From Hemileia vastatrix (taxonomy: Eukaryota > Basidiomycota > Pucciniomycetes > Pucciniales > Zaghouaniaceae), in contig JASXTE010000017.1 in assembly GCA_030280995.1 (NCBI GenBank), forward strand, positions 10,440,498-10,504,497: 64,000 nt of DNA, written 5' to 3'. The notes beneath the pieces were generated by a model. That model had not been told where the DNA came from and made no database searches. It was given only the letters and a program-made list of their open reading frames with translations. The position numbers were made by a program, and so were the translations under genes. Below, piece after piece: positions 2,883 to 35,328 of the stretch; position 1 is the first letter of the stretch; each line of letters begins with the position of its first letter.

Positions 2883-2922
2883 CACCACCGAAAAAATGGG
2901 GGGGTATTGCTAGCAATACCCC
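2883..2922 (+). repeat. Left terminal inverted repeat with internal 22-bp palindrome
   Basis: It starts CACCACCGAAAAAATGGGG. The last 22 bp (2901-2922) are a perfect palindrome: half-site GGGGTATTGCT followed by its reverse complement. The right terminus at 35328-35289 differs at only three positions. It is preceded by AAA (2880-2882), which is repeated after the right terminus. Confidence 0.92.
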
Positions 2923-4827
2923 TTGCTTGAACTCCGTTGAGCCACAAATCTATGCTTGAATTATGCACACATCATCACCATGTAGGAAATTGTTTGGCCT
3001 TACATTTAGTCAGAGATTTGTCACAAATTGAGCTCAAGATGAACCTACATTGATCACCGTTTGATCTTTTAAAATCCTAATTTGATCATCAGTTGAACTC
3101 CCTTTGATCTCAATTTGATCTAACATAAGCTTTTGCATATCCAATATGTCAGCTATTCACTTTCAAAAAGATTTGTAATGAATTTCACATGGAATATGAG
3201 AAACGAAACCAGTAATTTTGAGTAAATGGCTCATCAAAATGATTTATCTACAACAAAATACCATCAAAATTCAATCTGATTACTGAAAACTTTTGGTAAA
3301 ATGACTAATAGATATTTAAATTGGAAAATAATATTCCATTTCTCAATTTCAAATTCAAAATATAAATCCTCGTTTGAAATGTGAATTTTGTAGATTCCTT
3401 GCCTTCCTATATTATGAGTAATATTTGAGGTATTTTACACCTTTGTAAATATGGTGTTGTGCTGCTAGAAATTATCTCTGTTTCAATTCAACTTTATTGA
3501 AGCTTGATTCCAGAATGATACATATTTTATAACTATTTTGAGAAAAAAGTCACTAGTAATGAATTTAGCCTTTTATCTGTCCTTTATTAAACCTCACTTA
3601 ATCCTACTTAAATCCAAATTGAACCACAAAAACCTTATTCAAGATATTTTTTAGACCAGGATGATTCAAGATTGGAGCAAAATATTATTTTAAATATCCA
3701 ATATGCCTATTGATTAAATTTCTTCAAGCTTACTTTAAATTCACATTAACATTAACTTTCACAGGAAATATTAAACACAAATCTTGAAAATATAGTATTT
3801 AAAATCATAATAAATATAATATAATATGCTTACAACAAAATTTTCTTTCTGGATTGATTGAAACAAAAAATTGTTCATTTGTGAAAATAGAAAAAATACT
3901 ATCCATCCTGAATTTAGAATTAATTTTTAAAAATTTAATGCCCCCTCACTTTCAAGTTTATCATGTATTTTGAAAATTATATTTTTAATAATTTTGTGAA
4001 TAGTACACCTGAGATATAAACTTGGGGATATCAAAAACTAAAACATCAGCAAATTGAAATGTTTTTTATTGTTATGAATGGAAATAATGATTGAAAAACA
4101 CCATTAGAGCAAGTTTGATTTTGAATAATAGGCATACTTTCTCATGTAAATTTCAATAAAAATAATTTTTATTCTTACATAAGTTGCGGTGGATACATTT
4201 GAGCTCAAAAAGAATTAAAATTGACAAAATAAGACTTCTATGATTCATATTCAAAAATGAAATCACCCTTCATTATCTACCTGTAAACTATTTTAAATTG
4301 AATAATTTCAAAGTCAGTATATACTGATGTTATTTTTTCTTCTAAAAAATTTATTATATAGATTAATAGTCATAAATAGTTGACATAGATGTTAAATTTA
4401 TATAAGCAATCTTTAATTCATAAAATGACAAAACTATCTTTTATGTAAAAAGTGATGAAGGAAAAAAATATTATTAAATTTTTGATGCACTATCAATAAA
4501 ATTGAAGATAGAGCATATCAAAAGTTTAAACTTAATTTCAATTTTGATATCTTCATTTTATTTTATTTTACTTGAGTAGAAAACAGATTTTAAATCTCAA
4601 TATAATTTTAAATCCCATTAGTTTGTAGATTTCAACATTTGAAACTATGAAATAAATATTTATGAAAGAATTTTACAATATTTGCCCTTCTAAAAACTCA
4701 TAAATCCAACTTCAAATCTTCTAACCTTCACAAGTAACCACAATGCATTCTGAAAATACTCTATATTTAAATAATTAAAGGTAAATAAAATTATGTTTTT
4801 ATTCTTTATTTCAATTTTTGATAAATA

Positions 4828-4858
<31 letters not shown>

Positions 4859-5252
4859 ATTTCTTAAAAAGTCTAAGAGGGAACTTAATAGTGGTTTTGG
4901 CATTAGATATATAGATTCAACTTTCAAAAAATTTGTTTGGAATAAATTACAAAGACAAAAAGGATATATTTTGATGAAAGAATACTGATTTAGGTTCTAT
5001 TAAAATTTTATTAACCATTTTTATGGAATATTAATCCATGGTTATCATTCTTTATGATATTATCATAGAATTTTTTCCTTTTTTAATATAATGATTTTCT
5101 ATTGTGTGGTATGTAGGCTAAGATAAGTTTAAAAGATTTATTGAAGATATATATACCAGAAACAGTATAATCTGTAGATTTATAACTATAACTTACTTTT
5201 CTGATGTTTTACATCATTGATAAGTAGCTCATGCATTACACAAGTAAATAAT
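2923..5252. other. Left subterminal AT-rich region of the giant element, no gene
   Basis: No protein-like ORF is seen. Five TTGATC motifs cluster within 3049-3120, close behind the left TIR, and could be subterminal transposase-binding repeats (inference). A short TA dinucleotide run lies at about 4826-4859. The rest is unstructured AT-rich DNA up to the nested Harbinger insertion. Confidence 0.6.
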
Positions 5253-5603
5253 AGGGGGTATCAATGTTGACTGATCCGCAATTAAATTAATTGCGGAAAA
5301 TAATCTGCATACCCCAATTATCTTCCGCAATTATTTTTGCTAATAATTGGGTTATTAGACACTTTACGTGTCAATGTTCACCTCTTATCTGACATTTTTA
5401 TCCTCAATATTTGATAACCACATCTTGGACAACTTTCTGGATATCCCAGCCTTCTACCTTGCTGCGCACTTCCATTCTCATCCCATCCTGTTCATTCTAT
5501 CCGCTCAGAATTTCTCCCCATTTCATCTATTTGATTCTTCTCCTTTTCATCTCGCTATCTCATCTGCTTGTTTCTGCTCCTTTTCATCTTCATTTATAAT
5601 AAC

Positions 5604-7001: not shown

Positions 7002-7130
7002 TTTCTTTTATTTCTTTCACACTTCATGTGTTCATATTTATTTGTACATAAATTTTACAATTATTTTCTGTATTTCTTGAAATATCGTATTTTAATGTTA
7101 AATATTCTTTTTTTAAATAAAATTTTCAAG

Positions 7131-16489: not shown

Positions 16490-16811
16490 CTATACTCTTT
16501 ATATGTATAATTTAATAAAGTATACCTTTGAAACGCTTTCTTAATATTTGAAATAAAGAAAAAGTATATAAATTTACTAATATGTAGATATGCTAACTTT
16601 TGTATTTCTAATATTGAAGATATGATAAAGTTAAAGGTATCATTGAATGATAATTGAAATTATGTTACTATTTTCTAATTTTTGATTTTTTTCTATTTTA
16701 AATCAAAATTGAATTCTCTTAGGATTGAACCATCAATGAGTAACGATTTGAAAAAAAAAACGGCCAGGGAAGAACTCTAACAATAGGTGGGCGAAAGACA
16801 TTGCTACTGGA

Positions 16812-17944
16812 ATGAAACTTGTAAACACTCTTGGAATGGATACAAACGGGAAGAAGCCACATTTCTATGCACGATCTTATGCAAATAATATGACAGATTG
16901 CAATAATTATTACAATTTTTTTCCTGGATGTAGTATTTATAAACCAAAAGGTGTCTTAATACCTAATGTTCTTGTGCAGACTTTTGAAATTCATGAGCTT
17001 AAAGAGCTAGATATGTTAGAAGCTACGGTGCAATGCATTAAGGATCTTTCTTACTGCAAACATGAAATTAAAAATAATGGTTATCATCAAAGAGCTGGTG
17101 GTTTTGGAAAAATGTTTGGTGGTGGCTTTATTTTAGATAGAAAGAAATCTTTACATATTCGTAAGTATCACTTTTTTTAATTTAAATACTGAATTTTTGA
17201 ATGCTTTTCCTTGCAGATGAATACACTGATGATATTGTAAAAACGGATGAATATAAAAAACAAATGAAGAGGATTGCAATGTACTTTGAATATTTTTTTA
17301 AAAAAATATCATATGTAAAGTACAATGAGGCAACTAATCTTTGCGCAAAACTTGGTATTCCTGGATTTTCAAAAGTTTCTAGTGAAGAAGAGGGTGTACC
17401 GTTTGCTAGTAATTTAACTTGGACATCTGGAGGGAATGGTAATGGGTTCTCTAATGAGGTTCATCTCGATAAGGATGCAAGTGAGTATACTTTAGGAATA
17501 TTTTTTCCTAAAGATACAGAAAAAAACACCATTCATATGAAGTATGATAAGACCCAACCACGACAAATAGGTGGAGAACTTATGTTTCCCAAAATTCGAA
17601 GTAAAATCAACTTTGAAGCAACTAATGGAATAACAGTGACATTATGGCCTGCCAATCAACTAAGGCATTTTACCTCAAGATGTCATGAAATTCCTGGCTT
17701 CACTAGGATAGGTTCTTCTATTCAAATCAGCACTAGACTTTTTCATGCTATAGAAAAGCTTAATGTTTTTGATATTGATATTTTAGAATACTTAGAAATT
17801 AAAAAAGAAAAATTTAGGTTAGAATATTTGATTAGTGCTTTGAGAGTTTTTTTGAAAAGAGATGACTTAATAGAGGAAGAAATAGAATCAGCAAAGTATT
17901 ATTTATCTAATGTTAAGACAAATCTAAAAAATCTAGATATATAA
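16812..17944 (+). CDS. Tet/JBP-like 2OG-Fe(II) dioxygenase
   Basis: Two exons, 16812-17160 and 17217-17944, flank a 56-bp intron (GTAAGT..TTGCAG); the spliced frame gives 358 residues. The C-terminal half carries the double-stranded beta-helix signature: HxD in SNEVHLDKDASEYTLGIFF, GGELMFPKIRSKINFEAT, a distal histidine in ANQLRHFTSR and the 2-oxoglutarate-binding arginine in GFTRIGSSIQIS. All expected catalytic residues are present. Known relatives oxidise 5-methylcytosine or thymine; rust fungi have many such genes. An open frame continues upstream of 16812 to a poly-A run at 16751-16760; an ATG at 16736 would join it if that run were one A shorter, so the true N-terminus is uncertain. It is the only cargo gene on the plus strand in the left half. 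Substrate is not deducible. Confidence 0.82.
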
Positions 17945-18742: not shown

Positions 18743-21173
18743 TTAATTTATTGAAAGGCTATGTTTAGCAAAAAAAGGTGATACTGGCTGAATGGAGCTC
18801 CAGTGATTAAGAAAATCTGCAGAAATAGCCCTAGCAATTCCCGGAGGACTTGGGGTATCAAATTTTAAAGGAAATGGATCACACTTGCCTATAAAAGGTT
18901 TTATTAATGTTAAAATATAGTTATTTAAATTTTTCCAAATTATTTCTTCCATCAAATGATTTTTTTTTTCATGTAAATTAAGAAACTTAACTTCTGATAT
19001 TACCTCCAAGCAATCAGCTTCTGAAGCCAATCTATGATCTTGAGAGCTCAGAAATAAACCACGGACACCATCGATTATATAGAATGTGAAAGATTGATAT
19101 CGGTGGTGGGAGTATTCAGAATTTATTTTGTTTAGTGCAGCCTTTTGTTTCTCTCTCATTATAGTCAGTTCAGTATTTTCGTTTTTCTCACTTGATTGTT
19201 GAGCTTCACTAGTCTTGCCACTTGATATTGTTGCAGCACAATATTTTGATTTAAGAATGATAATTGACATAATTATATCAATGATAATATTGCTGATTTG
19301 AAGAAGAGTTGACATTGATATATCACGGGTTTGAAGTGCAGTGGGACCAACTTCTAAGCCATCAGAAATCGGACTCTTCAGATTTGAAAGGTGAGCTAGA
19401 AGCTGAAGACCACGTTCAATTGGAAAATCTGAGTTAATGTTTTGATGTGATGGAAGCTGGCTGAATTCATGTGCGGTCAGATAAAGTGAAGATGATATAA
19501 GAGATACCCATGAAGAACGGCAGTGGTCACTTGGGATCATTAATCTCATGAGCATTCGGATAAGATTGGATTCAGGGTGATCCGTTTTCTTTGTTGAGGA
19601 AAGAATTTCAGTATTTAAACCATCAGGATCACATAAATCTTCCATTTTTTTGAAATCAATATTATCGAGTACCCATAGCTGTGAGCTATCAATCTCTAAA
19701 AAAATATTTGCTACAAAAGGAAAAAAAAATAAGTAAAAGAACAAAAGTCAAGACTAAAAATTATGGTAACTTACATAACTCAGTAAGTTTTGAAAGCCAA
19801 TCTTCTCCACAAGATTTTTCCCAATGAAAATTAAACATTGGAATATTTGACATGGGTTCTTGGGAAGAAGTAGAAGAGCGTAATTCGAGGAGAGTAAAAA
19901 TTTCCAACCACGACCTGAGGACCTTTGCCATGCTGATTCTACCTTTATAAAAATTATGAATTTTACAGAATTCCTCCTGCAAATCAGATTCTTTTAGAAC
20001 TGAGGGTGAATAAGTTAGAGGTTTTTTTGATATCTTGATTGGAGTTGATTTAATTGGTAGAGAAGCTTTTAAAGTGGTCAAAGTAGGTAATTTAGGAGGT
20101 GATGGGTATTGCTTCTTAGAAATGAAGGAATTCGCTGATAAGCTGTTTGAATCATCATCTTTATCAAACATATCAACATGTCTTGAAGAAGATTTTAAAC
20201 TTTTCTTTTTTTGATGAACAAGCATAGCTTCATATTCTGACAGTTGATCATCGCTATTTTCATCGCTCTTTTCATCATCTTCATCAGGGAGAGGGCGTTT
20301 ATGGATGGAACAATCTACAGCAGGTGAGTTTCTGGTACAAAATAACAAAAGAAAGATAAAAAGTACAATATGTAAGCAATAAAAGAGATATGTGATAGAA
20401 TTTTAAAGATAAAAGAATAACAATAAAAAAAAAAGGAAACAAGAATATACTCATTATCAAAACCTTTGCTTTTTTTTTGAGATTTATTATTTGATACATC
20501 AGAAAATTCATTAGCAGAAGCCGGTTTAATACGTCGAACAAAAGAGGAGCCTTGGGATAATCTCTTTTTCTTGGAGCGGATAACAGGTGTTTCAAGATTT
20601 TCCTTAGAAGTTGAAGCATGAGTTAAATCTGATGGTTCATCTGTCTCATCATCATCCCTAATGACAATGATTTCATCAGGAGGAATCATACCCTCCTCAT
20701 AAGCTACAAATATATATGAAGAAAAAAAAATATTAATAATCTTATCTACTAATTTAAAAGGAGACAAAAAAGGTGATGAACATACATTTTTCAAGGCTTT
20801 TCACATACTGGAGTAAGTCATTACAAGGGTTAGATAAATATGAAGGAGAAGGATTATTTTTAAGGATCTTGACAAGCTCTTCTGTTTTATCTCTAGCCAA
20901 TTCAAGTAAGTTGTGATACTGAACTCTCGTTATTTCCTGCCTCTCATTGCTAAGTACAGGAGGGTTAGGTGCCATGCCATGTGGCAGACATGGTGCAAGC
21001 TCAAAAGCTTCAAAGCGAGTATCAATCAGAGAGTGGGATGAAACACATTCGGGTGCTGGAAAATCAAATTTTTGAAAAAAAAAGATATAGAACATAAGTG
21101 AAATATATAACTTAAGAGAGAGGAACATGATATACATACAAAGTGGAGGTGTAGGATTTTGTATACTAGACAT
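18743..21173 (-). CDS. Unknown intact five-exon protein, 693 residues
   Basis: Exons 21173-21140, 21055-20786, 20703-20451, 20331-19775 and 19710-18743 join in a continuous frame of 2082 nt with standard GT-AG introns (GTATGT, GTATGT, GTATAT, GTAAGT donors). I do not recognise the family. The first half is acidic and serine/lysine-rich with likely disordered and nuclear-signal-like stretches (RSKKKRLSQG, KKKSLKSSSR). The second half looks folded and helical (NLIRMLMRLMIPSDHCRSSW, ISNIIIDIIMSIIILKSKYC, YQSFTFYIIDGVRGLFLSSQ) and ends near FAKHSLSIN. Five exons without a stop imply selection until recently. It lies between the Tet-like gene and the palindrome lattice; a DNA- or chromatin-related role would be a guess from position only. 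Confidence 0.75.
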
Positions 21174-22206
21174 ATTGATTAATGAATATTAAAAAAAAGT
21201 ATTTGATATCAAAAAATTATGATGTAATATGATGAATAATTATAAGAAACTCTATTCTAGAAAATTGAAGTTGATAATTTAATAGGATAAAAATTGAATA
21301 AGATTAAAATTAAAGTGAGGATGAAAGAAACAGAAAACATAAAGAGGGGGATTTTATATTATTTGAGCTTTTTTTAACATGTATTATTCATAGTGGGGTA
21401 AACTGAGTAACATGCTAAATCACAATCTGTTTATATTGAAGCAAAATTTGATGTAGCTAACAGAAAATACTAGTGATTCTTTGGGGACTTTTAGTGTGAA
21501 AAACAAATAATAACAAATGTATATCCCATATGCAAATTGCCACGGGTAAATACAAAATTTTTTAAATTAGAATTTACTCCTAAACAATGGAGATACACTT
21601 AATTAGTATATTATATGAAAAAAAAGGATAATCCTTTATGAATATTTGTTAAATTTACTTTCAGATGACAATGCGAGATTCACATATATACTGATATGCC
21701 TCATCAAACAAGAAATGAATTATAAATATAAAATTGGTAACATTAGAATTTAAGATAAGAATTTGTTTTTTAAGTGACAGGAGGAGTGTCAGGCTAGGGT
21801 GTGGGCACCGTGACCAAACCTTTGATAAACTTGGATACAACTAAGGGAAAAAAAAATTGAATAGTTTTATTTTGCAATATATCTTAGTCTGAACAAGATA
21901 TTGCATTGTTGTCCCTAACTATACCAATATTGTTACTTTTCAAAAGTTATAGGACTACTAAGTTGATAAAATATTATTATGAATCACCCAATGAAATACC
22001 TTAAGCAACATTCAAAATTATTAAAATATTAATATTCAATTTGAGATTTGGATTAGCTAATTTTTCACAACTTACCACAGTTTTGATTAATATAATAAAA
22101 CTTGAAAAAAATTGTTGAGATAACCTAGAAATGGGTGCAAGAAAATGATGAAACATATGACTTGAAACTTAACTCATACACTATTGATAAACTTCATGGA
22201 TCCTGA
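21174..22206. other. 5' flank of the unknown gene
   Basis: AT-rich with no ORF. It precedes the start of the five-exon gene on the minus strand, so it is its likely promoter region, and it merges into the palindrome lattice. Confidence 0.5.
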
Positions 22207-24143
22207 TTAATTTCTATCGAAATTAATTTTGAGACTAGCATATTGAATTTTAGCTATGACCAAGTACTGTAAGTGCCATGGTTTGTATTCAATATATTGG
22301 TGTTGAAGTTAATTTTGATAGGAATCAACAAGTATCATATGGCACCATGCATGAAACACTGACAGAAACCATCAAATTTATGAGGCAATGAACCTCATAA
22401 TTTCGATCGAAATTAATATAGACCCCTGCATATTGAATACAAGCCATTTCACATGGACTACACAGACATAGATAAAATTCAACATGCATGGCTTAAAATT
22501 AATTTTGATCGAAATTAACCAAGGCATTAAAACATCAATTTTTATATGGTGTACTTGATCAAACCAGTTTATCTAACTGCTTAGCTTACCTATACTTATA
22601 GGAATTTTATGCATAGTCCATGTCCATATTAATTTCAATCAAAATTAATGTTGACTAATACATAATGAATACATGCTATGCCACTTACACTTGCCAGGCA
22701 TAGCTACCATTAAATATGCCAGTATCAAAAATTAATTTCGATCGAAATTAATGAGCATGATAATCATGAATTTCTGGAGTCAACTGCTTATTTTTATGCA
22801 TGGTGCCTTGCCAACATTAATTTCGATCGAAATTACTTTTGATACTGGCATATTGCATGTATATATGCCTGGAAAGTGTAAGTGGCATAGTTTGTATTCA
22901 TTATGTATTGGTCAACATTAATTTTGATCGAATTTAATGTTGACATTTGCATATTGAACCCAAGCCAGAAAACAACCCAGAAGATTCTCCATAAAACTTC
23001 CCATTAATTTCGATTGAAATTAAGGCTGACCATATACATATTGAATGGTAGTTATATCTGGTCTGAGTAAGCGGAGATCACTTATATTCAATATGTATTG
23101 GTCAACATTAATTTTGATCAAAATTAATGAGCATTTTGATCATGAACTTTTTCAGTCAGTTAGTTGTTTCAATGCATAATGGCATGCCAACATTAATTTT
23201 GATCAAAATTAATGTTGAAATGATATAATGCTTTTTTGCATGACATGTAAAGGACGGCAAGTATTTTTAAGTATTGAAATTTACTATACATGTTGAGGGT
23301 AAATATAAAATTTACATATCCATATTAATTTCTATAAAAATTAATGTTGACCAATACATAATAAATAGTAAATATGCCTGGCTAGTGTAAGTGGCATAGC
23401 TTTTTTTCAATCTGCACTTGGCAACATTAATTTTGATCGAAATTAAGGTTCATGATTATCATCAATTTATTCAGTCAGTTGCTTACTGTTATGCATGGTA
23501 ACATGTCAACATTAATTTTAATGAAAATTGAATTTGACATGCCACCAAGCATTTATATGTAAGATGAAAAGTAGGGAACTCTATTCTTAAGTAAACACAT
23601 TACAATGAATATTGAGCATGTAAATATCATTTACACATTAATATTAATTTCAATCAAAATTAATGTTGACCAATAAACATTGAACACAAGCTTTAAAACT
23701 TACACACACCAGATATAACTACCATTCAATATGTATATGGTGCTCACTAATTTCGATTGAAATTAATGAGCAGTTTTATGAAGAATTTTTTGGGTCGTTT
23801 GCTGGTTTGGGTTCAATATGAAAATGTCAATATTAAATTCTATTGAAATTAATGTTGACCAATACGTAATGAATACACACTATGCCACTTACACTTTCCA
23901 GGAATAGACACCATGCAATATGCCAGTATCAAAAGTAATTTTGATTGAAATTAATGTTGGCAAGGCACCATGCATAAAAATAAGCAGTTGACTCCAGAAA
24001 TTCATGATTATCATGCTCATTAATTTCGATCGAAATTAATTTTTGATACTGGCATATTTAATGGTAGCAATGCCTGGCAAGTATAAGTGGCATAGCGTGT
24101 ATTCACTATGTATTGGTCAACATTAAATTCGATTGAAATTAAT
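22207..24143. repeat. Lattice of ~19 copies of a 22-bp palindrome in alternating inverted modules
   Basis: The core is half-site ATTAATTTCGA followed by its reverse complement. Perfect palindromes are at 22731-22752, 23107-23128, 23192-23213 (30 bp with flanks CAAC/GTTG) and 24019-24040. Imperfect copies start near 22207, 22397, 22497, 22628, 22816, 22917, 23003, 23324, 23426, 23511, 23643, 23746, 23832, 23934 and 24122. From 22628 the spacing alternates 101-104 and 85-86 bp, with two intervals of 132. Spacers are also repeated in opposite orientations: 22621-22960 is an inverted match of 23820-24150 (shared words GCCACTTACACTT, TATGCCAGTATCAAAA, GGCACCATGCATAAAAATAA). The block fills the spacer between two minus-strand genes. 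Function unknown. Confidence 0.93.
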
Positions 24144-24357
24144 ATGGATACATAAATGTGACATAAAGAGGTATGGACCATCAATTTGTTGAAAATACAT
24201 TTTTATATCTCATACATTATTTGTTTTTCTTAAATAAAATGTTACTCTCTCTCAATATCACTTTATAACATTTACCAAGCTGCTTTGAAAAAAAAAGAAT
24301 ACATAAAATTCAATATAAGATAGCTATATTACACAGAAGATCACCGTTATACCTAAG

Positions 24358-26035
24358 TTATGATGATGTTGATGCTCTATTAATTGATTCCCAAATCTTT
24401 ACCAGATCAATATCAGCTCCAACCCCAAGTGACTCACGTTCATTCACAGATAATCCTTGAAAAAATATTGCTGAATAGCAATTCTTGGGGAGGTATTTGG
24501 GAACATTGAATATACCATTTTGTGCAACTGTCCTTTCTGATGACCGTGAATATGTTTTTAATGCTGATTTTTTTTGAGCTGGTGTATGGGCTAAGTCCTT
24601 TGTCATCTTATCCATTTTTTTAAACAAATCATTGAGTTCAGGATTTTGCCATCCAGGAATAGCTCGGATAGGTGCAGTTGGGGCTGGTGCTGGGCCTTCC
24701 TCGATATCAGAGATGCACCTAGTATCATGAAAAAGCACAACAAAACCTGGCACATCACTGCAGAGATCTCTTGCTAACTTGTAGCGTGCACTAGCAATCT
24801 GAATTCCAACTAAATCAGCTTCATAATAACAAAAAGCAAAGTAAAATAAAAAACTTACCTTGGTCAGATAACGTTTTACTTGTGCCCTTGCCCTCTTTTC
24901 AATCTTTTCTCTTGCTACCCTTTCCTCTTCTTGCCCAAACAACCTTATCATCTCCTTCCCCTTATTAACTACCCATTTCTCAATAACACATTGAGTGAAC
25001 TGAAGCTTTGACTGATCGATTGTATTCAAGGTGGTGAGCCATCTGGTACAGTGGTCGCATACTATGCTTCCCATGACTTGATTCCATGTTGATTCTGAAA
25101 AATCACGGCAAGTCCAATCAAAAGCAAATTTCCGAAAACCTTTTTCTTGCAATTCACGCTCTAAGTTTCTTTTGACAGAAAGTGGGATTGGTGCTCCTCC
25201 TTTTAGTCCTCGAGGCTCAGGTGCTGGAAAAAATTCGGGTAATCGAATTTTGGATTGCAAGAAGGCTATAGAATTGGTTATCAGAAATTGTCGATCAGCT
25301 GCAGAATTGGCACGGTTAGAAGATTGGACTTGGGTTAGGACAGTTTGAATGGTTTTTAGTTTGAATTGGCTCCAATCTTTCCAATTTTCAATCTCCAAAG
25401 GTGTTGGGCTCGCAGGATATTTTGATATTTGTGTTGGTCACCCAAGACAATACTTCAGAAAGTGGTAAATATTTCTATTTAGACTGTCCGAGCTCCTGGG
25501 AACATCATTCCTTCTAACTAAGCCTCTTACAGCCCTTAACCCCCGTTCTCGCTCATGAGACTCTGCTGAATTGAGTCTGTGGTAATCACTGATACCCATA
25601 ATGATTGAGGGATTCACTAACAATTCAAATAAGTTAATTAAATTGGTTATTTTTCAATAAAAGAATACACTACAAATTTGACTTACCTGCTCCACTTGTG
25701 CTTGCTCCTTGGTTAGGCTGAGCAGATGATGATTGGTCTCCAAAAAATTCCCTCAATACTTCACTAGCCCAATCTCTTCCTAGCTGATCAGCTTGCTGAT
25801 CAGCACTTTCAGAAGCAGAAGGATGATTGGGATTAAAATTTCTTGGTTCTGAATGAGACTCTTGGCCTGGATTGGGATTAGGTGGTGGGTTAGGATTAGG
25901 TGGTACAGATTGAGATGCATCTGGAGGTGGATCAGCAGAGGGTGGTGGAGGAGTATTTCCAGTATTAGTATGTTGAGGCGGAAAACAATCAGAATTGGTT
26001 GGGTCAACAGACATCCCTTCAAAATTATCATCCAT
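24358..26035 (-). CDS. Unknown transposon-associated protein, family member A (one apparent frameshift)
   Basis: Exon 1 (26035-25687) encodes a P/N/S-rich disordered leader (MDDNFEGMSVDPTNSD..). Exon 2 starts at 25616 and runs to about 25440, where the frame ends in TGA; the next block needs a frame change and continues through 25398 to 24859. A phase-0 intron (24858-24799, GTAAGT..TTCAG) precedes the last exon to 24358. The folded part shares landmarks with member B at 30900: GFRKFAFDWTCRDFSESTWN aligned to GFPGSTFAWNLDWFDKWN, an R/K-rich helix before the same intron position, a CxSD(I)E block, and a C-terminal GLPxNCYSxxFxxxL-type motif (YLPKNCYSAIFFQGL). I recall similar proteins near basidiomycete transposons but cannot assign a function. 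The frameshift may be a mutation or a missed micro-intron. Confidence 0.6.
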
Positions 26036-26462
26036 AATGAACTGTAATAAAATAAAATAAAATAAAAATAATCAGTTGTTAAAATTTTTACCTATCAAAG
26101 CTAAAGTAAAAAAAGATACTATGTATTATAGTCTTGTAAACGTGTATGTTCTCTTGTCGAAAAATAAAGTGAATAATATATAGCTATCAGCTAAAGTTGG
26201 AAGGTCAAACTATTTATAGTAGATGAATGAGCAAGAAGATCATTCATTAAGTAAAACTTTTATCATATTTCTCATTATCATGATTTTATTTCTTTCATTC
26301 TTACATTTAAGATAAAAATGACTCATTGAAAGCATGGGTTCTCTCGCAATAAAAGCAACCAAAGTAATTGTTCACTAATTTATGATAAGGTAAGTTGGAT
26401 GCATTGCATTTTTTAATCGAGCATTGAATTATTTCTTTCACCATTTACAAATATCACCAATC

Positions 26463-29400
26463 CTACAAATTTCCCCAATCCCAAATTAACACAAAGATGT
26501 TAGTCAACAGAAAATAAATTTGATTAATTTTTTCACTCACTACTGTCTGCAGTCCAATGGCAGTTAAAACCTCATCTTTGATTCCAAACATTCCTTTTTT
26601 GTGCTCGACAGTAGCTGCATGTCCAATTATTGCATCTTTCTTAATCACAATTTGAGTTGCTTTGGCTACTCTTACTAACTGACAATGCACTTGTGGGAAA
26701 AGCTCATAGGGATCCTTTGATGTTTCTTCTGGACGGAGCTCTTTGAAAGGACTTACTATTAAATATATTTGATCATTCTCTTCCTTTGATCTGAAAAGAT
26801 CATCAATTCGCCCAAACTGGCTATCTTTTCCATAGTAGAATTCAATTGTTGAATTAGCAATGTGTCAATGGTAACTAGTAAACCTCTTTCCATGTATCAA
26901 TATGCTTGCTACATTTTCAACTACCCGATCCCCACTTTTCTCCGATGGTGTCAAAGCCCGTCTTGAAGTTTCTTTTCCCATTCGTGCCCTTACCCATTTA
27001 GTAAATAATGCCATACTTAGATGGATCCATTTGTTTTGTTTATCGAGATCAATATGGATTTTTTTAGTCTCACATTGATCATTATCTTCAGCTTCACCAC
27101 TTCCGATACCAATGTTTGAGCATTGTTAGCGGTATCTCTCCTGTGGTAAATATTAATAAATTAGCACAGCTGAGTTTTTAAATCATTGCTTACAAACATT
27201 ACATACGTGGATGGTGATTGTTTGGAATTTCAGATAATATATGATTCACCCGCTCTCCAGACCAAGTAGCTGTACCTGAAGGTGGACCAAGACGCTTTAT
27301 TATTTCAGGATAATGTTGAGTGATATGCAGATTTGGCTTTGCATTAATATTCTTCCAACCCTCTTCAAGGCACTCACGATACTCTAACAGAAATTGATCT
27401 AGATCTTTAAGCTCATTAGTCTGTATATTTTTTAATGTCAAAAAATTGGTGATCGAGCATAATGTTACAAGTGACTTGAGAAGATAATATTCTCTTAGTT
27501 TATCAGCTGAGGAAGCTGAAGATTCAGATTCTTTAAATTTTTCAAACCAAAGGGGTATAAGTGACAAAGGGAAGTAGAGAGTATACAGCATGTGCCATTC
27601 TGCTGCCTTGAGGGATCCTGCCTTTTTAGATCCTACTGATTTTGGAACTCGTGTTAGCCAGGAAGGTCTTCTTACTTGATCAATCATCTTCCATACAACC
27701 TGTAGCTCTGCTGCTGTGATTCGTGGATTACTACTACCTTCATTTTCTTTCTCCTTACCTTTCCTTTTATTTTCTTCATCTCTAGCTGTCTCATTTGATG
27801 AGTGAGATCCTTCACTCTGTGATATGCTAATGCTTCTTTGCCTTAAGTTATACAATGAATTCCTACTGTCACTGCTGTGAGACTGTATTGAGGCCACATC
27901 GCTATATGGAGGAATAAATTTGGAGCTGGATGACCTACTCTGGCTTCTTGATCGATTTGTTCCCAATCCTTCATTATCTAGTCCATGATGACTTGATGAC
28001 TGTCTTGAACTTGTACGTCTTTGCCGCTTGTGCTGTCTCGTGTGTCCTGAATCATCATCATCATTATTTGTGGTGCTTAAGCTACTTCTACGTTTTTTTG
28101 AATGTTTGTGCAGTGAAGTATCAGAAAAGAAATCAACATCTTCTTCTCTTACATGCCAATTTTTATCCTTTTCCAGCTTTCTTTCTAGATCTTTTGCTGC
28201 ATTTTGGATTTGAAAATAGCTTAGACTGTGATCTTTTAGGTTGCCAAGCATATGTGAATGCATAACATCAATTGAGCAATATTCAGTTGGACGCCAATAT
28301 TCAAGGTTATTCAGCTCACTCCATCGTACCCCATGATTTTGAACAATTGATACACGCTCCCAATGTGACTTAGAATTTTTCCACTTTGTTGCCCAGCACA
28401 TATGATCCTCATGATTCCGTAATGAAAAATTTCCCACATTCTTTTCACTAATTTCATCTTTAGAGATATTACAGAAAGAGCAGAACATTTTTTCAGAGTG
28501 ACTCGAAAAGCCAGCCAATTTTCGTATTGCAGGAATGTCACCTATCAAAGAGAACAATGCAACTCTTAATTTCTGGCCTTGTGGATAAAGATGTGTCTTT
28601 TCAATCAATATACCATCCCATAGAGTTTGTAGATCATTAACCAGTGGTTTTAGAAGGTGATTAAGCTGTTCACTTGTGGGTTCTGTTGGTCCAGGTATAA
28701 TAGCATACAAAAAAAGATTTTCCATTTTGTATCTATCTTCTTGAGGTAGGTTCATACACACCATCATAATATTGCCTACAGACTTCTGATGACCTCCAAT
28801 CCTATTGCCACCAGGCCTAAACCAGTCGACATATAAAGTAAACATTAAGTTGCCTGAAGTTATCGTATATTCATCATCATTGCTATCCAGAGCTGGAGTG
28901 GTTATGGGAAAGTTTTTCCAAATTGAACCATCACAAACATCCTTCATCAAATCACACTCTACACGTTCTGCCACAGGGGTTTTCTTCTCAATCAGAAGCT
29001 CAAATTTGAACAGTTTGATCTTTTCCTTAAGCCAGTGGATAAAAGAATGGTGATGAAATGTTTTAAGAGATAAGTATTTTACATGTTCTTGATGTTCCTC
29101 CATCAAATACAGCCTTTCATCACATTTAACTGTAATTTGTCCTGCTCCAAACATTTTTAAATAGCGCTTTGATGATGAAAGAAATGGTTGATTGCAACAT
29201 AGTATAGATGGTTGAGATTCAGAGTTATACTCATAAAGAGCAAAGCATTTAGGACAGCATGTTTTAGTGAAAAATGATTGATTGAGCTTTAATCGACTAT
29301 AAACTGTATCTATCAAGCGTGGGACCAGGCGGACAATGCTATCAGAATCCAGTATTCCACTATCACCTAGAAGTTTGAGCTTCTTAATTTCTTCATCCAA

Positions 29401-29824
29401 AAATTGAGTACAACCTTCTTTGCTCAAATGATGAATAAGAGAAAGCTTTGCTGCCTGCCACATAATTATTTAGCTATACCGTTCCCCAAGATTTGAGTTT
29501 CTAGAGACTGTTGAAGATACTTCTGCCCCCAATAGCAACTGCCCCTATGTAATAAATCATTGAAACATCATAAAGACTTTAATTCTCACATTGAACTATA
29601 GATATACAGCTTACTGTTTCTGTGGAGCGGGAACTTCCAATGTTAAGTGGATTGTTGGAAGAAATAACCATCTGGTCCTTCTTATTTCTTTCCTCTTGAT
29701 GTTTTGCATAAGAATTAGAGCTTTTGAAAGCCATACCAACTTCAAAGGACCCAGAAGAAGTTTGATACTTTCTATTGACACATCCAAGATCTTGACATTG
29801 ACATACATGAAAAAATGGAGGCAT
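26463..29824 (-). pseudogene. Plavaka/Tnp2-like (CMC superfamily) transposase, damaged C-terminus
   Basis: The leader exon from 29824 encodes MPPFFHVCQCQDLGCVNRKY, typical of the N-terminal C/H zinc region, and ends near 29621 at a GTAAGC donor. The main block 29463-27199 (754 codons) carries a CPKCFALY..CCNQPF zinc motif, LYVDWFRPGGNRIGG with a candidate catalytic Asp (near residue 213 of this block), IIPGPTEPTSEQLNHLL, GDIPAIRKLAGFSSHSEKMF with CSFC following, and IDVMHSHMLGNL. A low-complexity S/R/K insert spans residues 430-580. It continues across a GTATGT..CACAG intron into EIPLTMLKHWYRK, where a frameshift occurs. The conserved C-terminal region (STIEFYYGKDSQFGRIDDLF, KDPYELFPQVHCQLV) follows down to about 26500 with one further TGA at about 26869. 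The superfamily's CAC ends and 3-bp TSD match the giant element, so this is probably its own, now broken, transposase. Confidence 0.85.
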
Positions 29825-30899
29825 TGTAATTGTGATAATTGTAGGAATAAGTTAGCTATTCGAAGTTACCAATTGAAGGTATTCCTTTTTTTGAAAGGCA
29901 CTAGCTAATATAAGCTACATTTTTTTATCAAAAGAATATGATGGAATGTGAGTTGAAATTATTTAAGTTTAAATGTTTAATTTTTAATCGGATAAATTAT
30001 ATATTAATTTAAAGTTATGCAGTCTACTTTATTTGTATTCTGTATACTCTCTGCATTTGTACAACAATGCATGCATGTTTATCAGAATATTTTCTATCAT
30101 AGAAAAAATTCTGTTGTACGCACAAGCATCTTAATTATTTTTCTATCAAATGCCTTCTGAGTTATATCTAACTACCCTATAATTATTTGATTTTGATAGA
30201 AATTCTTAGTTATGGACTATAAGAAAAGTAATCCATATTTTTAACATAATTATTTAAAAAATTACCCCAAAAATCAAAGTTAAACCCAAAAATAAGGTTA
30301 ATATTTTGTAAAAAACAATCACAAACATATTTCTTTCACTTTGAAAATTGGTCTGTACTAGGTAGAATTTTCTATAAAGAAAAAATCAAAAATACTCAAA
30401 TAATAGATGCTACAAAAGTGTAAACCTTAAAGAATTACATAAAAGCTGAAACCTTGTATAACTTTTCATACATAAATGTGATGAAGTGAAACTCTAGTCT
30501 ATTTATTCAGGTTGAAAAAAATTACTCAATAGAATATGTATTACTATCATATTGGACCAAAAATAATTTTTTGGTAATCAAAAAATGAACATAGCCTCAC
30601 ATTTAACAAATTATTTTTGTGGAAGAATTTTTTGAAAAGAAAAAAAAATCCGTTTCTTAAATGAGTCTGCTTTTATCACATAATCATTCTCTTTATTTTA
30701 TACCATTCCTTTTGAGTTCAAGTTGCATATAAAAATATAATATATGCATATTATAATTCCATAAAGTTTAAATATTTCTTATTCTTAATTTTTGTGATAT
30801 TTCTCCTTAAATCAACTTTGATCATAAAGTTTTGGAGCTCAACAATTTATCCTTCCTCTTTGTTTAATTTAATTGAACACTTTCTTAATCTAATTATTT
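29825..30899. other. Intergenic AT-rich region between divergent genes
   Basis: No ORF or repeat was seen. It separates the transposase start (minus strand, 29824) from family member B (plus strand, 30900), so both promoters must lie here. Confidence 0.55.
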
Positions 30900-32021
30900 A
30901 TGAACCCTAGTAGCTCTTACTTTCCTCATGGAAACCTGCCCACAAACACAAGAACACTTAATAGAATTTTTAATGAGACTTTGCCTCCATTCAATTCTAA
31001 CTTTTGTAGATCTATACACAATTTTTGTCGTTCACTTTTGGATATGTCACCAGAATCAAATGGATGGAAACAAAACCCTACTGAAGAGCAATTAGACAGA
31101 TTTTCATCATTCGACATGAATTCTTGCAACATTACCTTTGAACTACCTCATCCAGAATCAAATTCAGCGGTTTCGGAAAAGTTTCCACCAATTTTCCGTG
31201 AATCTTTTATTGAGCACCTTCGCATGTGTGGTTTCCCAGGATCAACTTTTGCTTGGAACCTAGATTGGTTTGACAAATGGAACCAGGTCTTGGCAAATAT
31301 TCTCATTAAACACTGGGACAATGCCTTAAAAACCAATAATTTGATTGCATATCCAATTGAATCAACTCAAATTAGCTTCTCAAATCAAATAGGAGTTCTT
31401 CACCGTTGGTTTTTAGGTCATGCTGATAGATTAAGACTTGGGAAGGATTCTCATAGCTCTCAAGAAATAATCAAAGTGAGAAAGCATAAATATAGAATAA
31501 AAAAAAAAGTATGAAAATCCCTTTTTTTTCAACCATTTTTATTTATGACCTTTATTTCAAATAATAAAGATTCTTAGAATTCAGTTAACCGAACTAAACT
31601 TCTTAAACAACTTCCACATTGTGAAACTTATCACAACCTTTTCACAAACATCAAGTGTTGTTCAGACACCGAAATCAATAATGATGGATCGTTAAGACGT
31701 ATCTTAATGCAATGGAGGTCTGAAGATTTTTCTAAAGTTGCACAATATCTTGACCAACAACACTTTGATATTCAAGATAATTCAACCTACTCTGGAAGTC
31801 TGCTAAAGGACTTGGCCTTGTACAAAAGAATCAGTTTGGTTTCAACATTATCCCCTAACCTTAATCCTTCTCATTTCCCCCGGGGTTTGCTGAATGACTG
31901 TTATTCTCCCTTATATCTTGCATCTCTAAATCCTCAACAACTCAGACTTTTAAATCCTCAAAATCCCATAAATTTACCTGCTCTCCTTGAAATTCTTTCT
32001 TCCTCTAATGTGAGTGATTGA
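30900..32021 (+). CDS. Unknown transposon-associated protein, family member B, intact
   Basis: The start is the ATG at 30900 (MNPSSSYFPHG). Exon 1 (30900-31508) joins exon 2 (31578-32021) across a 69-bp intron (GTATGA..CTTAG), phase 0, giving 350 residues with no internal stop. It has the same layout as member A: a variable N-terminus, FPPIFRESFIEHLRMCGFPG, AWNLDWFDKWNQVLANI, a basic helix KVRKHKYRIKKK exactly at the intron, a CCSDTEI block and a C-terminal HFPRGLLNDCYSPLYLASL. The shared intron position with member A proves common descent even though identity is low. Its 3' end meets the SNF2 gene coming from the other side, and the two may overlap by a few bases. Function unknown; the Trp- and Cys/His-poor fold offers no clue. 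Confidence 0.78.
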
Positions 32022-32153: not shown

Positions 32154-34433
32154 TTACATTGTTAGCTCCATTTTTTTCCTTTGAATCTTATACATGCTGA
32201 ATTCTATACTTCCTTGTACAAAATAATTCAAAACATTTACTTCATTTTGCTGCCCCATTCTATACAGCCGATCAACAGCCTGTTGCTCAACTGCTGGATT
32301 CAAATTTGGCCCCTATTTCAACATTGAACATATAAAAAATTTAATATTTTTGTTCTTAATATGAAATAAAAGACATTGAGCTCACCATTATATATACATT
32401 TTGAGAACACCTGAGATCTATACCCACTCCTGCAGCCTGAATCGTTCCAACCAAAACTTGGCAATTTTTATTAAAATGAAATTCATGCATATTTTTGTCT
32501 TGCTTTGTCCTGCTGAGTTCACCCGTAAGCTGGGTATACCTAATATTGTGGTCATCTAAAGCCATTTTTATTCTATTTTGAAATATTAGAAAATTGTTTT
32601 TAATAAGCCAACACAATTTTGTAAAACAATTCATTATAGAATCACTTACATCTGCAAAAAGTCTGCAAAGTTGGAGAATATAACAGCTTTTGGAAAATTT
32701 ATACCCCTTTCACCAGACAAAAAGTTTTTTAAGTGGCCTATAAGATGACAAATCTTTGCGGAATGCTGCCAGGTGAAATCAAAAGTTGGAGTTTCATCCA
32801 GATTTTCGTAGATTGGATGGTTGCAGAATTTTCTTAAAATCATCAGCTCTCTTAGAAACTCAGATGAGTCCCAAGGGAATTCAGTGCTTCTGGAGGGCCC
32901 ATATCGCTCAGTGAATCCTTCTTGAAGCACATCAAGTTTAGACCTCCATGAATCTGCTAATTGAACCGATATCCCCCTTTGAATCTTTTTTGGAAGAGAC
33001 AAAATTGCATCCTTTGTTCTACGTAGGCTTATGACTTTCATTAAGTGATTGATTGATTTAATAGAATTAGCCTTTCCTTTTTGCAAACCTGGAAAAAGGA
33101 AATTCTTCCATAACCAGTCTTCTTGCCACTTTTCGATTCTAAGAAAAAATATGAGACTTTGAAGGTCAGTGGGCCTGTTCTGAAGTGGAGTTCAAGTCAA
33201 GCATAGTCGGTGTTGGGATTCCAAGTCAAATATTGTTTGAGCCCTCTGCAAGTAAGGATTTTTAATGTAACTAAAAGAATATTTATAAAAATAGATTATA
33301 AAAATTAAGTTTTAAGTTTTAGATATAGAAATGGGCACTAACTGAGCTTCATCTAAAACAACTCTATACCAAAAGAGCATTTGAGTCACCGGTATCTTTT
33401 TTTGGCTTTGATTTTTTGACATCGTTGAGCTAGCTATTTCAGAGGTCGTTAAAACAATAGCAGTGTCCTGTAGCTCATTGACATTAGTATTTTGACAATC
33501 CTTCCCATAAAGAACCTTGAAAGGAAGCGCATTATCTTCAAAGTGCACACTTATTTCATTGATCCAATTTGATAGTGTTGCCAGGGGGCATATAATCAGT
33601 GTGGCTGAACTCCAATTAATACCTTCTTGATTTTCTGATACCTGGAATTGTCTTGCTTCACCTTGAGTTGCACTTATAAGAGAAAGAGTTGAAAGTGTCT
33701 TTCCCAAACACATATCATCAGCAAGTATTGACCCGTTTCCTTCAGGCGTTAATTGATTGTTAGGAAACTGATCTTTATAGTCATCGAATCCAGTTCTAAG
33801 CCAATGGTTGTCCTGGTGCCTCCACATGATATCCAACTTTTCCTTTAACATTTGTTCATTGTCAATCATAAAATTTATTGCTTGAAGTTGATGTGTTTTG
33901 AGAACTGTTTTGATTCCTCGGATAAGTTGATCAGCTTTCCAATCTTGAGTACTCTGAGATATTTGGAAAGAGCCTTCAAAAATTACATGCGGGATATTAA
34001 AAAAGATAGTGGAGTCGTAGTTCAGGATTGGACATAAATCGATTTGTGCAGAAGAAAATGCTTCTTTAGCAAGACTGATTAGTGTAATTGAAGAAAAGAG
34101 GCATCCCCAAAGTTGATACTGATTACCAAAAACTGGAACCAAGTAAGCATGAAAATAGAAAGGCTTCATAGGATTCAAGGCACTTCTTTGGTTTAAATGG
34201 TGAGATCCAGAGCCAATGTCACCCAATAGTGGTCCAATGTGCTGACTCTGCACTTGAGAAAGATTACCGACAAGGGTTGGTTTTCTTTCTTCAAATAGTC
34301 CAAAAATATGAACATTGGAATGGCCTCGCTGTAAAATTGTGGGGGTTGGTGAGTTTTGAAATCTTGAAATTACATTCATATAAATTTGATCGATTGTTAT
34401 TGAGAACTGTCCAACACATCTGAGACTTGACAT
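32154..34433 (-). pseudogene. SNF2-family (Rad5/Rad16-like) DNA-dependent ATPase with one stop
   Basis: Exons 34433-33343, 33243-32650, 32572-32386 and 32312-32154 splice in frame; one more short exon ending near 32004 is possible. Motif I reads ILADDMCLGKTLSTLSLI (DDMC instead of the usual DEMG), Ia is LIICPLATLSNWINEI, and motif II is VVLDEAQ at the first splice site (DEAH is usual). Motif III, LT-G-TPLQN in relatives, has TGA in place of the glycine codon (33192-33194). Helicase C follows with VISLRRTKD, LRKFCNHP, VLVGTIQAAGVGIDL and motif VI NPAVEQQAVDRLYRMGQQ. All other blocks are intact, so the stop looks recent. The family moves nucleosomes or works at stalled forks. Its N-terminal 160 residues are not recognised. 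Confidence 0.83.
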
Positions 34434-35235
34434 ATTAAGTAAGAATAGTATCTGAAGATAGTGGTTGTTAAAAGATGAATTGAAGCAAAAAATGAATAAT
34501 CAGTTTTGAATAAAACGACAAAATAACTTTTTAGCATATGCTATGCTAAGCTCATAATTTTTTCACATGTATTATTATTATCTTTTTAATAAATATTGGA
34601 AGTAAATCAATGATAACTGAAATGAATAATATGGCTTAAAAATAAATCTTGAGCCTATAGAGTAAATTTTGGTTTGTGGAGGAAGAAAAATTTTCTCAAT
34701 AAAAATGTGCTTTATTGTTACATTATAATCACAAAATAGAATAATTTCACTCTTATTACACTTATTTATGTTTCTGTCTAATAGTAAAATGCTTTAGATG
34801 TCAGTTCAAAATCCAAATTGAAACTACTACCTAGAACGATGTCTTGATACTAACATACTTTTTGTAAGTCTTTGGACAGACACTTATGGTGATCTCAATA
34901 ATATTAAAATTGATTTGAATTGTATGTTTTATCAAATATCTATGTAGTCTAGTGTAATAATTGAGATACTACAGTTTAACCTTCTGTTACCAACTTGGCA
35001 AGAAAATATATGTAGATATTCTTAGAACAAATATCAAATTTTGCTTTCCACTAGATGGGAAAGTGAATATTATGATATGTTAAGTGATATGTTCAAGCTT
35101 TGCTCAATCTGTGCTCAGCTCAAAATCAAAGTAATCACCAAGCTCCAAGAAACCTGTGATTGAGTTTGGTTGAACCTAGGTCTAACTGATTACCAAATCT
35201 TTGTCCAATTAATTTAAATCTGGTTTCACAATGAA
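34434..35235. other. Right subterminal AT-rich region, no gene
   Basis: No protein-like ORF is present inside the element. The interval contains the upstream region of the SNF2 gene. Confidence 0.5.
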
Positions 35236-35276
35236 CTCCCAACAGCCTTCCAACAGCTTTCCAACTACTTCCCAAC
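35236..35276 (+). repeat. Subterminal 11-bp tandem repeats near the right TIR
   Basis: Three and a half copies of an 11-mer of the form CTTCCAACAGC (variants CTCCCAACAGC and TTTCCAACTAC, then TTCCCAAC) end 12 bp before the right terminal palindrome. CACTA-type transposases usually bind such subterminal repeats; here that role is inference. Confidence 0.75.
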
Positions 35277-35288
35277 ATTTTTAAATGA

Positions 35289-35328
35289 GGGGTATTGCTA
35301 GCAATACCCCCCCAAATTTTCTGTGGTG
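35289..35328 (-). repeat. Right terminal inverted repeat with internal 22-bp palindrome
   Basis: On the minus strand it reads CACCACAGAAAATTTGGGG.. and ends in the same perfect palindrome as the left TIR (35289-35310). It differs from the left copy at three positions (7, 13 and 14). AAA at 35329-35331 duplicates the AAA at 2880-2882. Confidence 0.92.

What the first reader, a model, noticed from the sequence alone, without database searches (positions are those of the whole stretch)
2883..35328. A 32.4-kb cargo-carrying DNA transposon split a retroelement gag gene
Matched 40-bp TIRs (CACCAC start), an exact AAA duplication, and restoration of a gag reading frame spanning 37117-35332 and 2882-1990 on excision define one insertion of 32,446 bp. 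It holds a Plavaka-type transposase plus at least five non-transposase genes and large palindromic blocks. Giant cargo transposons are known as Starships in ascomycetes, but those use a tyrosine recombinase. A CMC/Plavaka-type counterpart of this size and content is not one I know of.
Basis: partly seen in the sequence, partly recalled or inferred. Interest (0 to 1): 0.96.

Follow-up and report, generated by a model that had tools for sequence, protein, structure and literature searches.

The report
27-kb transposon family carrying TET and SNF2
This is one of an estimated 800 copies of a 27,000-base, likely cut-and-paste jumping gene, in what is probably a rust fungus, that carries, beside its predicted jumping enzyme, genes predicted to erase DNA methylation (TET) and to remodel chromatin (SNF2), so it likely fights the silencing its host would use against it.

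Summary
The 2883-35328 insertion has TIRs matching at 37 of 40 bases and an AAA duplication, and sits in a gag gene whose uninterrupted relatives show the precise empty site. It is not a single 32.4-kb unit: 5253-10755 is a later Harbinger-like insertion, absent from a second complete copy. The canonical element is 26.94 kb. In the 748-Mb genome the exact 40-base left terminus occurs 798 times, the right 728. Of 99 left termini examined, 66 have a correctly oriented right partner within 60 kb, 42 of them at 26.5-27.5 kb (orientation-flipped control: 2). TET and SNF2 genes sat at the predicted offsets in 10 of 10 copies probed. The transposase has tnp2/CMC motifs. Termini (CAC..GTG) and 3-bp duplications match the TET-carrying EnSpm elements described in Puccinia, not Plavaka or Starships. 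CpG sites in copies mutate about 19 times faster than other C/G sites, which suggests methylation. Most likely a giant autonomous EnSpm-class transposon whose TET and SNF2 genes counter silencing; that role is inferred. A giant, high-copy, SNF2-bearing variant of a known kind.

The parts
2883..2922 (+). left terminal inverted repeat (CACCAC...GGGGTATTGCTAGCAATACCCC)
   Evidence: the family version (A at the seventh base) occurs 798 times exactly in the genome
35289..35328 (-). right terminal inverted repeat
   Evidence: 728 exact copies in the genome
2880..2882 (.). target-site duplication AAA, left copy
   Evidence: empty sites in L011, L025
35329..35331 (.). target-site duplication AAA, right copy
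26466..29466 (-). transposase gene, tnp2/Transposase_21 (ORF 27202-29466; predicted second exon within about 26466-27140)
   Evidence: Pfam PF02992 E=9.5e-16; D, D, C(2)C, H(3)H and E positions agree with relatives; intron modelled in copy C1 and lifted to the window
16736..17941 (+). TET/JBP-like 2OG-Fe(II) dioxygenase gene of the core element (predicted exons 16736-17160 and 17217-17941)
   Evidence: PF20515 E=4.5e-22; HxD and H in alignment; exon model from copy C1; at predicted offset in 10 of 10 copies
32202..34433 (-). SNF2/Rad5-class ATPase gene (predicted exons 33343-34433, 32650-33270, 32386-32572, and about 32202-32312)
   Evidence: PF00176 in two pieces; spliced model of copy C1: PF00176 E=1.8e-56 plus Helicase_C E=2e-17; motifs I, II (DEAH), III, VI present; exons lifted to the window; at predicted offset in 10 of 10 copies
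18746..21188 (-). gene C, multi-exon, unknown function
   Evidence: ORFs of 334, 213 and 144 aa; corresponding ORFs in copy C1; no significant Pfam match
24361..26071 (-). gene B, unknown function
   Evidence: ORFs of 359 and 133 aa, 396 and 133 aa in copy C1; no significant Pfam match to the 359-aa ORF
30894..32018 (+). gene A, unknown function; weakly similar to gene B (23% over 101 aa, E=1e-4 for the single comparison)
22620..24164 (.). non-coding block of direct and inverted repeats (arms up to 237 bp, 96% complementary)
   Evidence: present in copies C1 and L028
5253..10755 (.). nested Harbinger-like element, a later insertion and not part of the 26.94-kb unit: Myb/SANT-like gene 5535-7001(+), second TET-like gene 7853-8506(-), N-terminal part of a Harbinger-like transposase 9747-10460(-)
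   Evidence: absent from copy C1 with a clean AAT duplication; PF20515 E=6.7e-29 for 7853-8506, weak PF13837 E=0.0041, below its cut-off; the Harbinger label of 9747-10460 rests on recalled motifs, no Pfam match
1915..2882 (-). interrupted retroelement gag, part downstream of the insertion (weak aspartyl-protease match at its end, below Pfam's cut-off)
35332..37117 (-). interrupted retroelement gag, part upstream of the insertion (one in-frame stop near 35915)

Best explanation
This is one copy of a 26.94-kb DNA transposon family of the CACTA/EnSpm (tnp2, CMC) class, present in an estimated 800 copies, that likely moves by cut-and-paste and is predicted to counter host silencing with its own TET dioxygenase and SNF2 ATPase. 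Shown: matched 40-bp TIRs, 3-bp duplications at 7 of 10 copies read, precise empty target sites, tight length clustering, the transposase signature, and TET and SNF2 in all 10 copies probed. Inferred: the transposase cuts at the CAC..GTG ends and inserts with a 3-bp stagger. The element is CpG-methylated by the host, and the methylated cytosines deaminate. The TET protein oxidises 5mC on the element, and the Rad5-class SNF2 ATPase opens or repairs its chromatin, keeping the transposase gene expressed or helping to process a 27-kb excision. The window copy inserted into a gag gene, was later hit by a Harbinger-like element, and is decaying (TET start out of frame, one stop in SNF2).
For: TIR, TSD and empty sites. 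Second complete copy at 98.66% identity. Right ends sat at the predicted 26.94-kb distance in 13 of 19 correctly placed 1-kb probes. 18 pairs measured, 13 of them 26,869-27,099 bp. Exact termini 798 and 728, reversed-pattern controls 0. 66 of 99 left termini paired within 60 kb, 42 at 26.5-27.5 kb, flipped control 2 of 99. TSD read on both sides of 10 copies: 7 exact. Transposase PF02992 and DDE/C2C/H3H positions. TET PF20515. SNF2 model with Walker A, DEAH, TGTPxQN and RIGQ motifs. TET and SNF2 at predicted offsets in 10 of 10 copies, 20 of 20 stretches at 95.3-99.6%. In those copies a 309-bp TET stretch is open in 7 of 10 and a 264-bp SNF2 stretch in 7 of 10. CpG decay: C>T 6.6% and G>A 6.2% at CpG versus 0.33% elsewhere; 97 of 260 CpG versus 48 of 732 GpC sites differ between two copies.
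Against: No activity was observed; transposition is inferred from structure. The host's DNA methyltransferase could not be looked for (the PF00145 search did not complete). CpG transitions are only 81 of 444 changes counted, so CpG decay is fast per site but not the main source of change, and it could come from a RIP-like mutator rather than silencing methylation. TSDs fail in 3 of 10 copies: one single-base difference, one altered terminus, and one 52-kb pair that is probably two different elements. 33 of 99 left termini had no exact right partner within 60 kb. The TET protein found no relative at E<=1e-3 in the protein database and its structure model was poor, so enzymatic activity is unproven. 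Of 10 copies probed, 3 are interrupted in the TET stretch, 3 in the SNF2 stretch, and 2 have lost the HxD aspartate of TET.
Confidence: 0.7

Rival explanations
1. The element is the same EnSpm-class transposon, but SNF2 and TET serve transposition mechanics or the host rather than anti-silencing: for example, the Rad5-class ATPase helps repair or replicate across the 27-kb excision, and TET acts on a base other than 5mC (6mA, as CcTET can).
For: The SNF2 best PDB match is RAD5 (6l8n, E=5.2e-48). It lacks a RING-like pattern. Kojima 2025 notes that other activities of PU-type TETs cannot be excluded. The review PMC13297926 relates the SNF2 domain of fungal DNMT5 to Rad8 proteins (passage).
Against: The fast CpG decay of the copies points to 5mC on the element, the usual TET substrate. 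TET genes have been captured by many unrelated transposons (PMC12730594).
Confidence: 0.26
2. A Starship-like cargo transposon: the non-transposase genes are host cargo picked up by this insertion.
For: Large size and several non-transposase genes.
Against: 10 of 10 copies probed carry TET and SNF2 at the same offsets, and 42 of 66 pairs have the same length within 26.5-27.5 kb. The ends are TIRs with 3-bp TSDs and a DDE transposase; no tyrosine recombinase appeared among the 16 element ORFs scanned. There are about 800 exact left termini.
Confidence: 0.03
3. Chance or composite: the two ends belong to different short elements, or the window is an assembly artefact.
For: A 3-bp AAA duplication in 30% GC DNA is weak evidence on its own.
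Against: Paired ends at a near-fixed distance in dozens of loci, flipped control 2 of 99; a second full copy; empty sites.
Confidence: 0.01

Closest known systems
TET+ EnSpm families of Puccinia (Kojima 2025, PMC12730594; abstract, parts 2-4 of the text, figure legends and found passages read; figures and supplements not)
   Same: Plavaka-like tnp2 transposase, CAC..GTG termini, 3-bp TSD, encoded TET/JBP dioxygenase, rust hosts (host here inferred).
   Different: The main text does not contain 'SNF2', and I saw no element size or copy number in the parts read. Here: 26.94 kb, 798 exact left termini, a Rad5-class SNF2 gene and three further genes in the element.
Plavaka (PlavakaA/B)
   Same: Related transposase of the same CMCT clade; some Plavaka carry TET genes (PMC12730594).
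   Different: Plavaka termini are TGT..ACA or CATCA..TGATG; here CACCAC..GTGGTG.
Enlarged En/Spm elements of the red alga Chondrus crispus (16-20 kb, 4-5 ORFs; cited in PMC6431247, passage read)
   Same: Oversized CACTA/EnSpm elements with several ORFs.
   Different: Here 26.9 kb with TET and SNF2 genes, about 800 exact termini, fungal host.
Starships (ascomycetes; also reported in Tremella fuciformis, PMC13066641, passages read)
   Same: Large fungal DNA elements with many genes.
   Different: Starships use a tyrosine-recombinase captain and carry variable cargo. This one has a DDE transposase, TIRs, a 3-bp TSD and the same TET and SNF2 genes in all copies probed.
AcademH and KDZ/Dileera transposons
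   Same: DNA transposons that encode a helicase (AcademH, title seen in a reference list) or a TET gene (Dileera, PMC12730594).
   Different: Different transposase classes (AcademH recalled). A TET+ Dileera family has 8-bp TSDs. The kind of helicase in AcademH was not read.

Membership tests
CACTA/EnSpm (CMC/CMCT clade) | tnp2-type DDE transposase with C(2)C and H(3-4)H between second D and E | tested here: met
   PF02992 E=9.5e-16; invariant D214, D310, C329, C332 in 10 aligned sequences; H-x3-H and E shared with the relatives that reach that far (read by eye)
CACTA/EnSpm (CMC/CMCT clade) | TIRs with CAC..GTG ends | tested here: met
   CACCAC..GTGGTG in the window; GTGGTG at the right end of 17 of 18 measured copies
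CACTA/EnSpm (CMC/CMCT clade) | 3-bp target-site duplication | tested here: met
   7 exact of 10 copies read on both sides; empty sites
TET+ transposon | encoded TET/JBP dioxygenase with HxD...H inside the element | tested here: met
   PF20515 E=4.5e-22, H88-D90 and H156, gene present in 10 of 10 copies; HxD lost in 2 of them
TET+ transposon | dioxygenase activity on 5mC | not testable with these tools
   needs biochemistry
Plavaka | termini TGT..ACA or CATCA..TGATG | tested here: not met
   CACCAC..GTGGTG; criterion from PMC12730594
Plavaka | transposase groups with Plavaka in a tree | not tested
   no reference set of EnSpm and Plavaka transposases was at hand; the relatives found are uncurated tnp2 proteins, the second best from Puccinia striiformis
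Starship | tyrosine-recombinase captain gene | tested here: not met
   no such Pfam match among the 16 element ORFs scanned, which are not every ORF; a DDE transposase is present
Starship | variable host cargo | tested here: not met
   similar length and the same TET and SNF2 genes in the copies probed
Rad5/HLTF-class SNF2 | SNF2_N and Helicase_C domains with Walker A, DEAH, RIGQ motifs | tested here: met
   (spliced model of copy C1); best PDB match RAD5
Rad5/HLTF-class SNF2 | inserted RING finger and HIRAN domain | tested here: not met
   no RING-like pattern, no HIRAN or RING in Pfam at E<=0.01

The most novel reading that the evidence does not exclude
A giant 27-kb EnSpm transposon that has amplified to about 800 copies (about 21 Mb, 3% of the genome) because it carries its own anti-silencing kit, a 5mC-erasing TET plus a Rad5-class chromatin ATPase with three unknown partner proteins. 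It would be the first DNA transposon known to pair a demethylase with a remodeler, escaping both methylation and the usual size limit on cut-and-paste elements.
Probability: 0.4. Interest if true: 0.85.

Novelty: new variant of a known kind. Interest (0 to 1): 0.7.

Why it matters
Cut-and-paste transposons are expected to lose efficiency with length (PMC6431247, passage), yet here 42 of 66 exact end pairs span about 27 kb and only 2 of 66 are shorter than 26.5 kb. If TET and SNF2 act together against methylation, the family is a natural experiment in transposon counter-defence: hundreds of identical termini in one genome, with a CpG clock that may record which copies were methylated. It also gives a candidate function to the multi-copy SNF2 family of Puccinia whose members are its closest relatives.

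Tried and rejected
Two separate short elements: rejected by end pairing. Host cargo: spoken against by the same genes in all copies probed. A 32.4-kb unit: rejected, because the 5.5-kb block is absent from copy C1 and most measured copies pair at 26.9 kb (13 of 18). The first test of copy length (10-kb stretches centred on 32.4 kb) looked mostly empty: 5 of 20 held core sequence, plus one 189-bp match, because intact copies end before it. I then predicted 26.94 kb and tested that: 13 of 19 correctly placed stretches contained the right end, one lay wholly inside an element, five showed nothing of it, and one further stretch (L058) was misplaced by my arithmetic. The 52-kb pair C67:1855885-1908012 is not taken as one element: its TSDs disagree. 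Structure predictions of TET (pLDDT 42) and transposase (pLDDT 46) were too poor for fold searches, so none was run. The TET homologue search found nothing at E<=1e-3, and TET had no PDB match. Subterminal repeats: no signal. Plasmid search with the transposase: no match. Genome-wide TET and SNF2 pattern counts were tried but not answered. The host species was not identified; 'rust' rests on the 35 best SNF2 relatives of 120 listed all being Puccinia. A synonymous/non-synonymous count for SNF2 between two copies (8 versus 21 codons) shows no purifying signal. In the same call my lifted transposase and TET exon ranges were rough, so its stop counts for those two genes are not used.
Full report
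CHECKING THE OBSERVATION. The ends at 2883 and 35328 carry 40-bp inverted repeats identical at 37 of 40 positions, flanked by AAA on both sides. The flanks belong to one gag gene: rejoined without the insertion they give a 494-aa open frame, preceded after one stop by a 400-aa frame. Among stretches fetched for another purpose, two (L011, L025) hold uninterrupted gag relatives, 87.8-92.3% identical, that cross the insertion point with a single TTT/AAA. A third such empty site (82-92% identical) lies beside another copy in L055.

THE UNIT IS 26.94 KB. A second complete copy, C1 (C42:18180378-18217043, 36,667 bp), aligns to the window element from end to end, 98.66% identical over 26,903 aligned bases. 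It lacks window 5253-10755, which in the window copy is bounded by inverted AGGGGGTATCAATGTT ends and an AAT duplication. That block is a nested Harbinger-like element with a Myb-like gene, its own TET-like gene and a truncated transposase. C1 has instead a 9.7-kb Ty3/gypsy element, with GCTAT read on both sides of it. Removing the nested block (5,503 bp plus one AAT) from 32,446 gives 26,940 bp. This predicted where undisturbed copies should end. In 13 of 19 correctly placed 1-kb stretches the right end was there; one more lay wholly inside an element and five showed nothing of it. Eighteen end pairs were measured through fetched stretches: 13 of 26,869-27,099 bp and five of 36.7-52 kb. In C1 the extra length is a nested insertion; for the other four that is presumed.

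COPY NUMBER AND CONTROL. The exact 40-base left terminus occurs 798 times (reversed pattern 0) and the right 728 times (reversed pattern 0) in the 747.6-Mb assembly. The tool listed only the first places. Of the listed rows I used 99 left termini (one C11 row left out) and 91 right termini (nine rows of C26 beyond 51 Mb left out). 66 of 99 left termini have a correctly oriented right terminus within 60 kb, 42 of these at 26.5-27.5 kb (median 26,966); 33 have none. Only two pairs are shorter than 26.5 kb. With orientation flipped, 2 of 99 pair. Nine pairs cluster at 28.53-28.67 kb, which suggests a subfamily. If each left terminus stood for one element, the family would hold about 21.5 Mb, 2.9% of the genome; the share that is full length was only sampled. 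Duplications were read on both sides of ten copies: seven exact (AAA, AAT, CCT, ATT, ATA, ATT, AGA). Three were not: one differs at one base, C1 has an altered last base, and one 52-kb pair disagrees and may join two elements.

GENES. The transposase is Pfam Transposase_21 (E=9.5e-16). In an alignment with nine relatives the two D and the C(2)C positions agree, and the H(3)H and E positions agree in those that reach that far. Its best relative covers the full length at 36-39% identity, and a Puccinia striiformis protein is second. The TET-like gene matches PF20515 (E=4.5e-22) and keeps HxD and H. The SNF2 gene, spliced in C1 over three short GT..AG introns, gives 685 aa with SNF2_N (E=1.8e-56) and Helicase_C (E=2e-17) and motifs I, II, III and VI, without a RING-like pattern. 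Its best PDB match is RAD5. Its 35 best database relatives of 120 listed are all Puccinia proteins, 31-46% identical, many from P. triticina, which makes a rust host likely. The ORFs of genes A, B and C that were scanned have no significant Pfam family; A and B are weakly alike. TET and SNF2 lay at the predicted offsets in 10 of 10 other copies, 20 of 20 stretches, 95.3-99.6% identical. In those copies a 309-bp TET stretch is open in 7 of 10 (6 of 10 open with HxD kept; 2 have lost its aspartate) and a 264-bp SNF2 stretch is open in 7 of 10. The window copy is decaying: its TET start is out of frame and SNF2 has one stop.

METHYLATION SIGNATURE. Between the window copy and C1, 97 of 260 CpG sites differ against 48 of 732 GpC sites. 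Against a per-column majority where at least four copies were aligned, CpG cytosines changed C>T in 6.6% and CpG guanines G>A in 6.2% of cases, against 0.33% at other C or G, about 19-fold. CpG transitions are nonetheless only 81 of the 444 changes counted there, because CpG is rare; observed/expected CpG in the core is 0.34. This is what deamination of 5-methylcytosine gives; a CpG-directed RIP-like process is not excluded. The search for the host's DNA methyltransferase did not complete.

MECHANISM. Shown: ends, duplications, empty sites, near-fixed length, shared gene content, dispersed copies. Inferred: cut-and-paste by the DDE transposase with 3-bp stagger. Inferred more weakly: TET removes 5mC from the element, and the SNF2 ATPase opens silenced chromatin or assists repair of the large excision. 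Rust TET-carrying transposons and their likely anti-silencing role are proposed by Kojima 2025 (PMC12730594; abstract, parts 2-4, figure legends and found passages read). The TET part of this mechanism is that proposal, applied here. The SNF2 partner, the size and the copy number are what this locus adds. The word SNF2 does not occur in that paper's main text.

COMPARISON. By termini (CAC..GTG) and 3-bp TSD this fits the EnSpm group that Kojima reports in Puccinia, and fails the terminal criteria given for PlavakaA and PlavakaB. It does not meet the Starship features tested: it has a DDE transposase and TIRs, and the copies probed share their genes. PMC6431247 (passages) treats elements over 20 kb as giant and cites 16-20-kb En/Spm elements in a red alga as enlarged. 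The listings of my paper searches showed no EnSpm-class element with an SNF2 gene or of this size and copy number. The library lacks most subscription papers, and Iyer et al. 2014 is known to me only through its citation in Kojima and recall, so absence in print is not established.

ODDS. On checking I corrected an earlier wording that copies decay mainly at CpG (81 of 444 changes). For that reason I lowered the best explanation from 0.8 to 0.7, and set the first rival at 0.26 (from 0.3) so that the list adds up.

VERDICT. A real, complete giant DNA transposon: one copy of a large family that spread recently enough to share identical termini. New variant of a known kind, with an inferred but testable anti-silencing function.

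Noticed in passing
window 5253-10755: Nested Harbinger-like element with a TET-like gene, a Myb/SANT-like gene (weak match) and a 3-bp AAT duplication. Kojima 2025 reports TA duplications and no Myb/SANT for TET+ Harbinger elements of rusts, so this may be a different TET+ Harbinger lineage. Relatives at 78-89% identity lie in L010, L012, L019, L022 and L043.
   Followed up: partly
L029-L030 (copy C1, at window-equivalent 16477-16493): A 9.7-kb Ty3/gypsy element with an open 1976-aa gag-pol frame, TGTCAG..CTGACA ends and GCTAT on both sides inside copy C1: a young insertion.
   Followed up: partly
genome, contigs C2, C18, C19, C26: Nine end pairs cluster at 28.53-28.67 kb, about 1.6 kb longer than the canonical unit, suggesting a subfamily that has itself spread.
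   Followed up: no
L006 (C67:18059419): Another left end is inserted in a copy of the same gag family, about 14 bp from the window's insertion point; its right end was not found at the two distances tried.
   Followed up: no
L008 (C67:1908012): The left flank of this copy reads, by eye, as coding sequence of a related tnp2 transposase gene, i.e. an element inserted in a relative.
   Followed up: no
window 1353-1894 and 36591-37117: A second, inverted copy of the start of the same gag family lies just beyond the interrupted gag (79-85% complementary).
   Followed up: no
window 57746-60891: Ty1/copia pieces on the minus strand (weak gag, integrase, RVT_2).
   Followed up: no
Puccinia proteins P0083-P0117: A multi-copy SNF2 family in P. 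triticina, P. graminis and P. striiformis, 31-46% identical to the element's SNF2; possibly transposon-borne there too.
   Followed up: no
window 22620-24164: Non-coding block of inverted and direct repeats with arms up to 237 bp, inside the core element and at least two other copies; function unknown, possibly an old fold-back insertion fixed in the family.
   Followed up: partly
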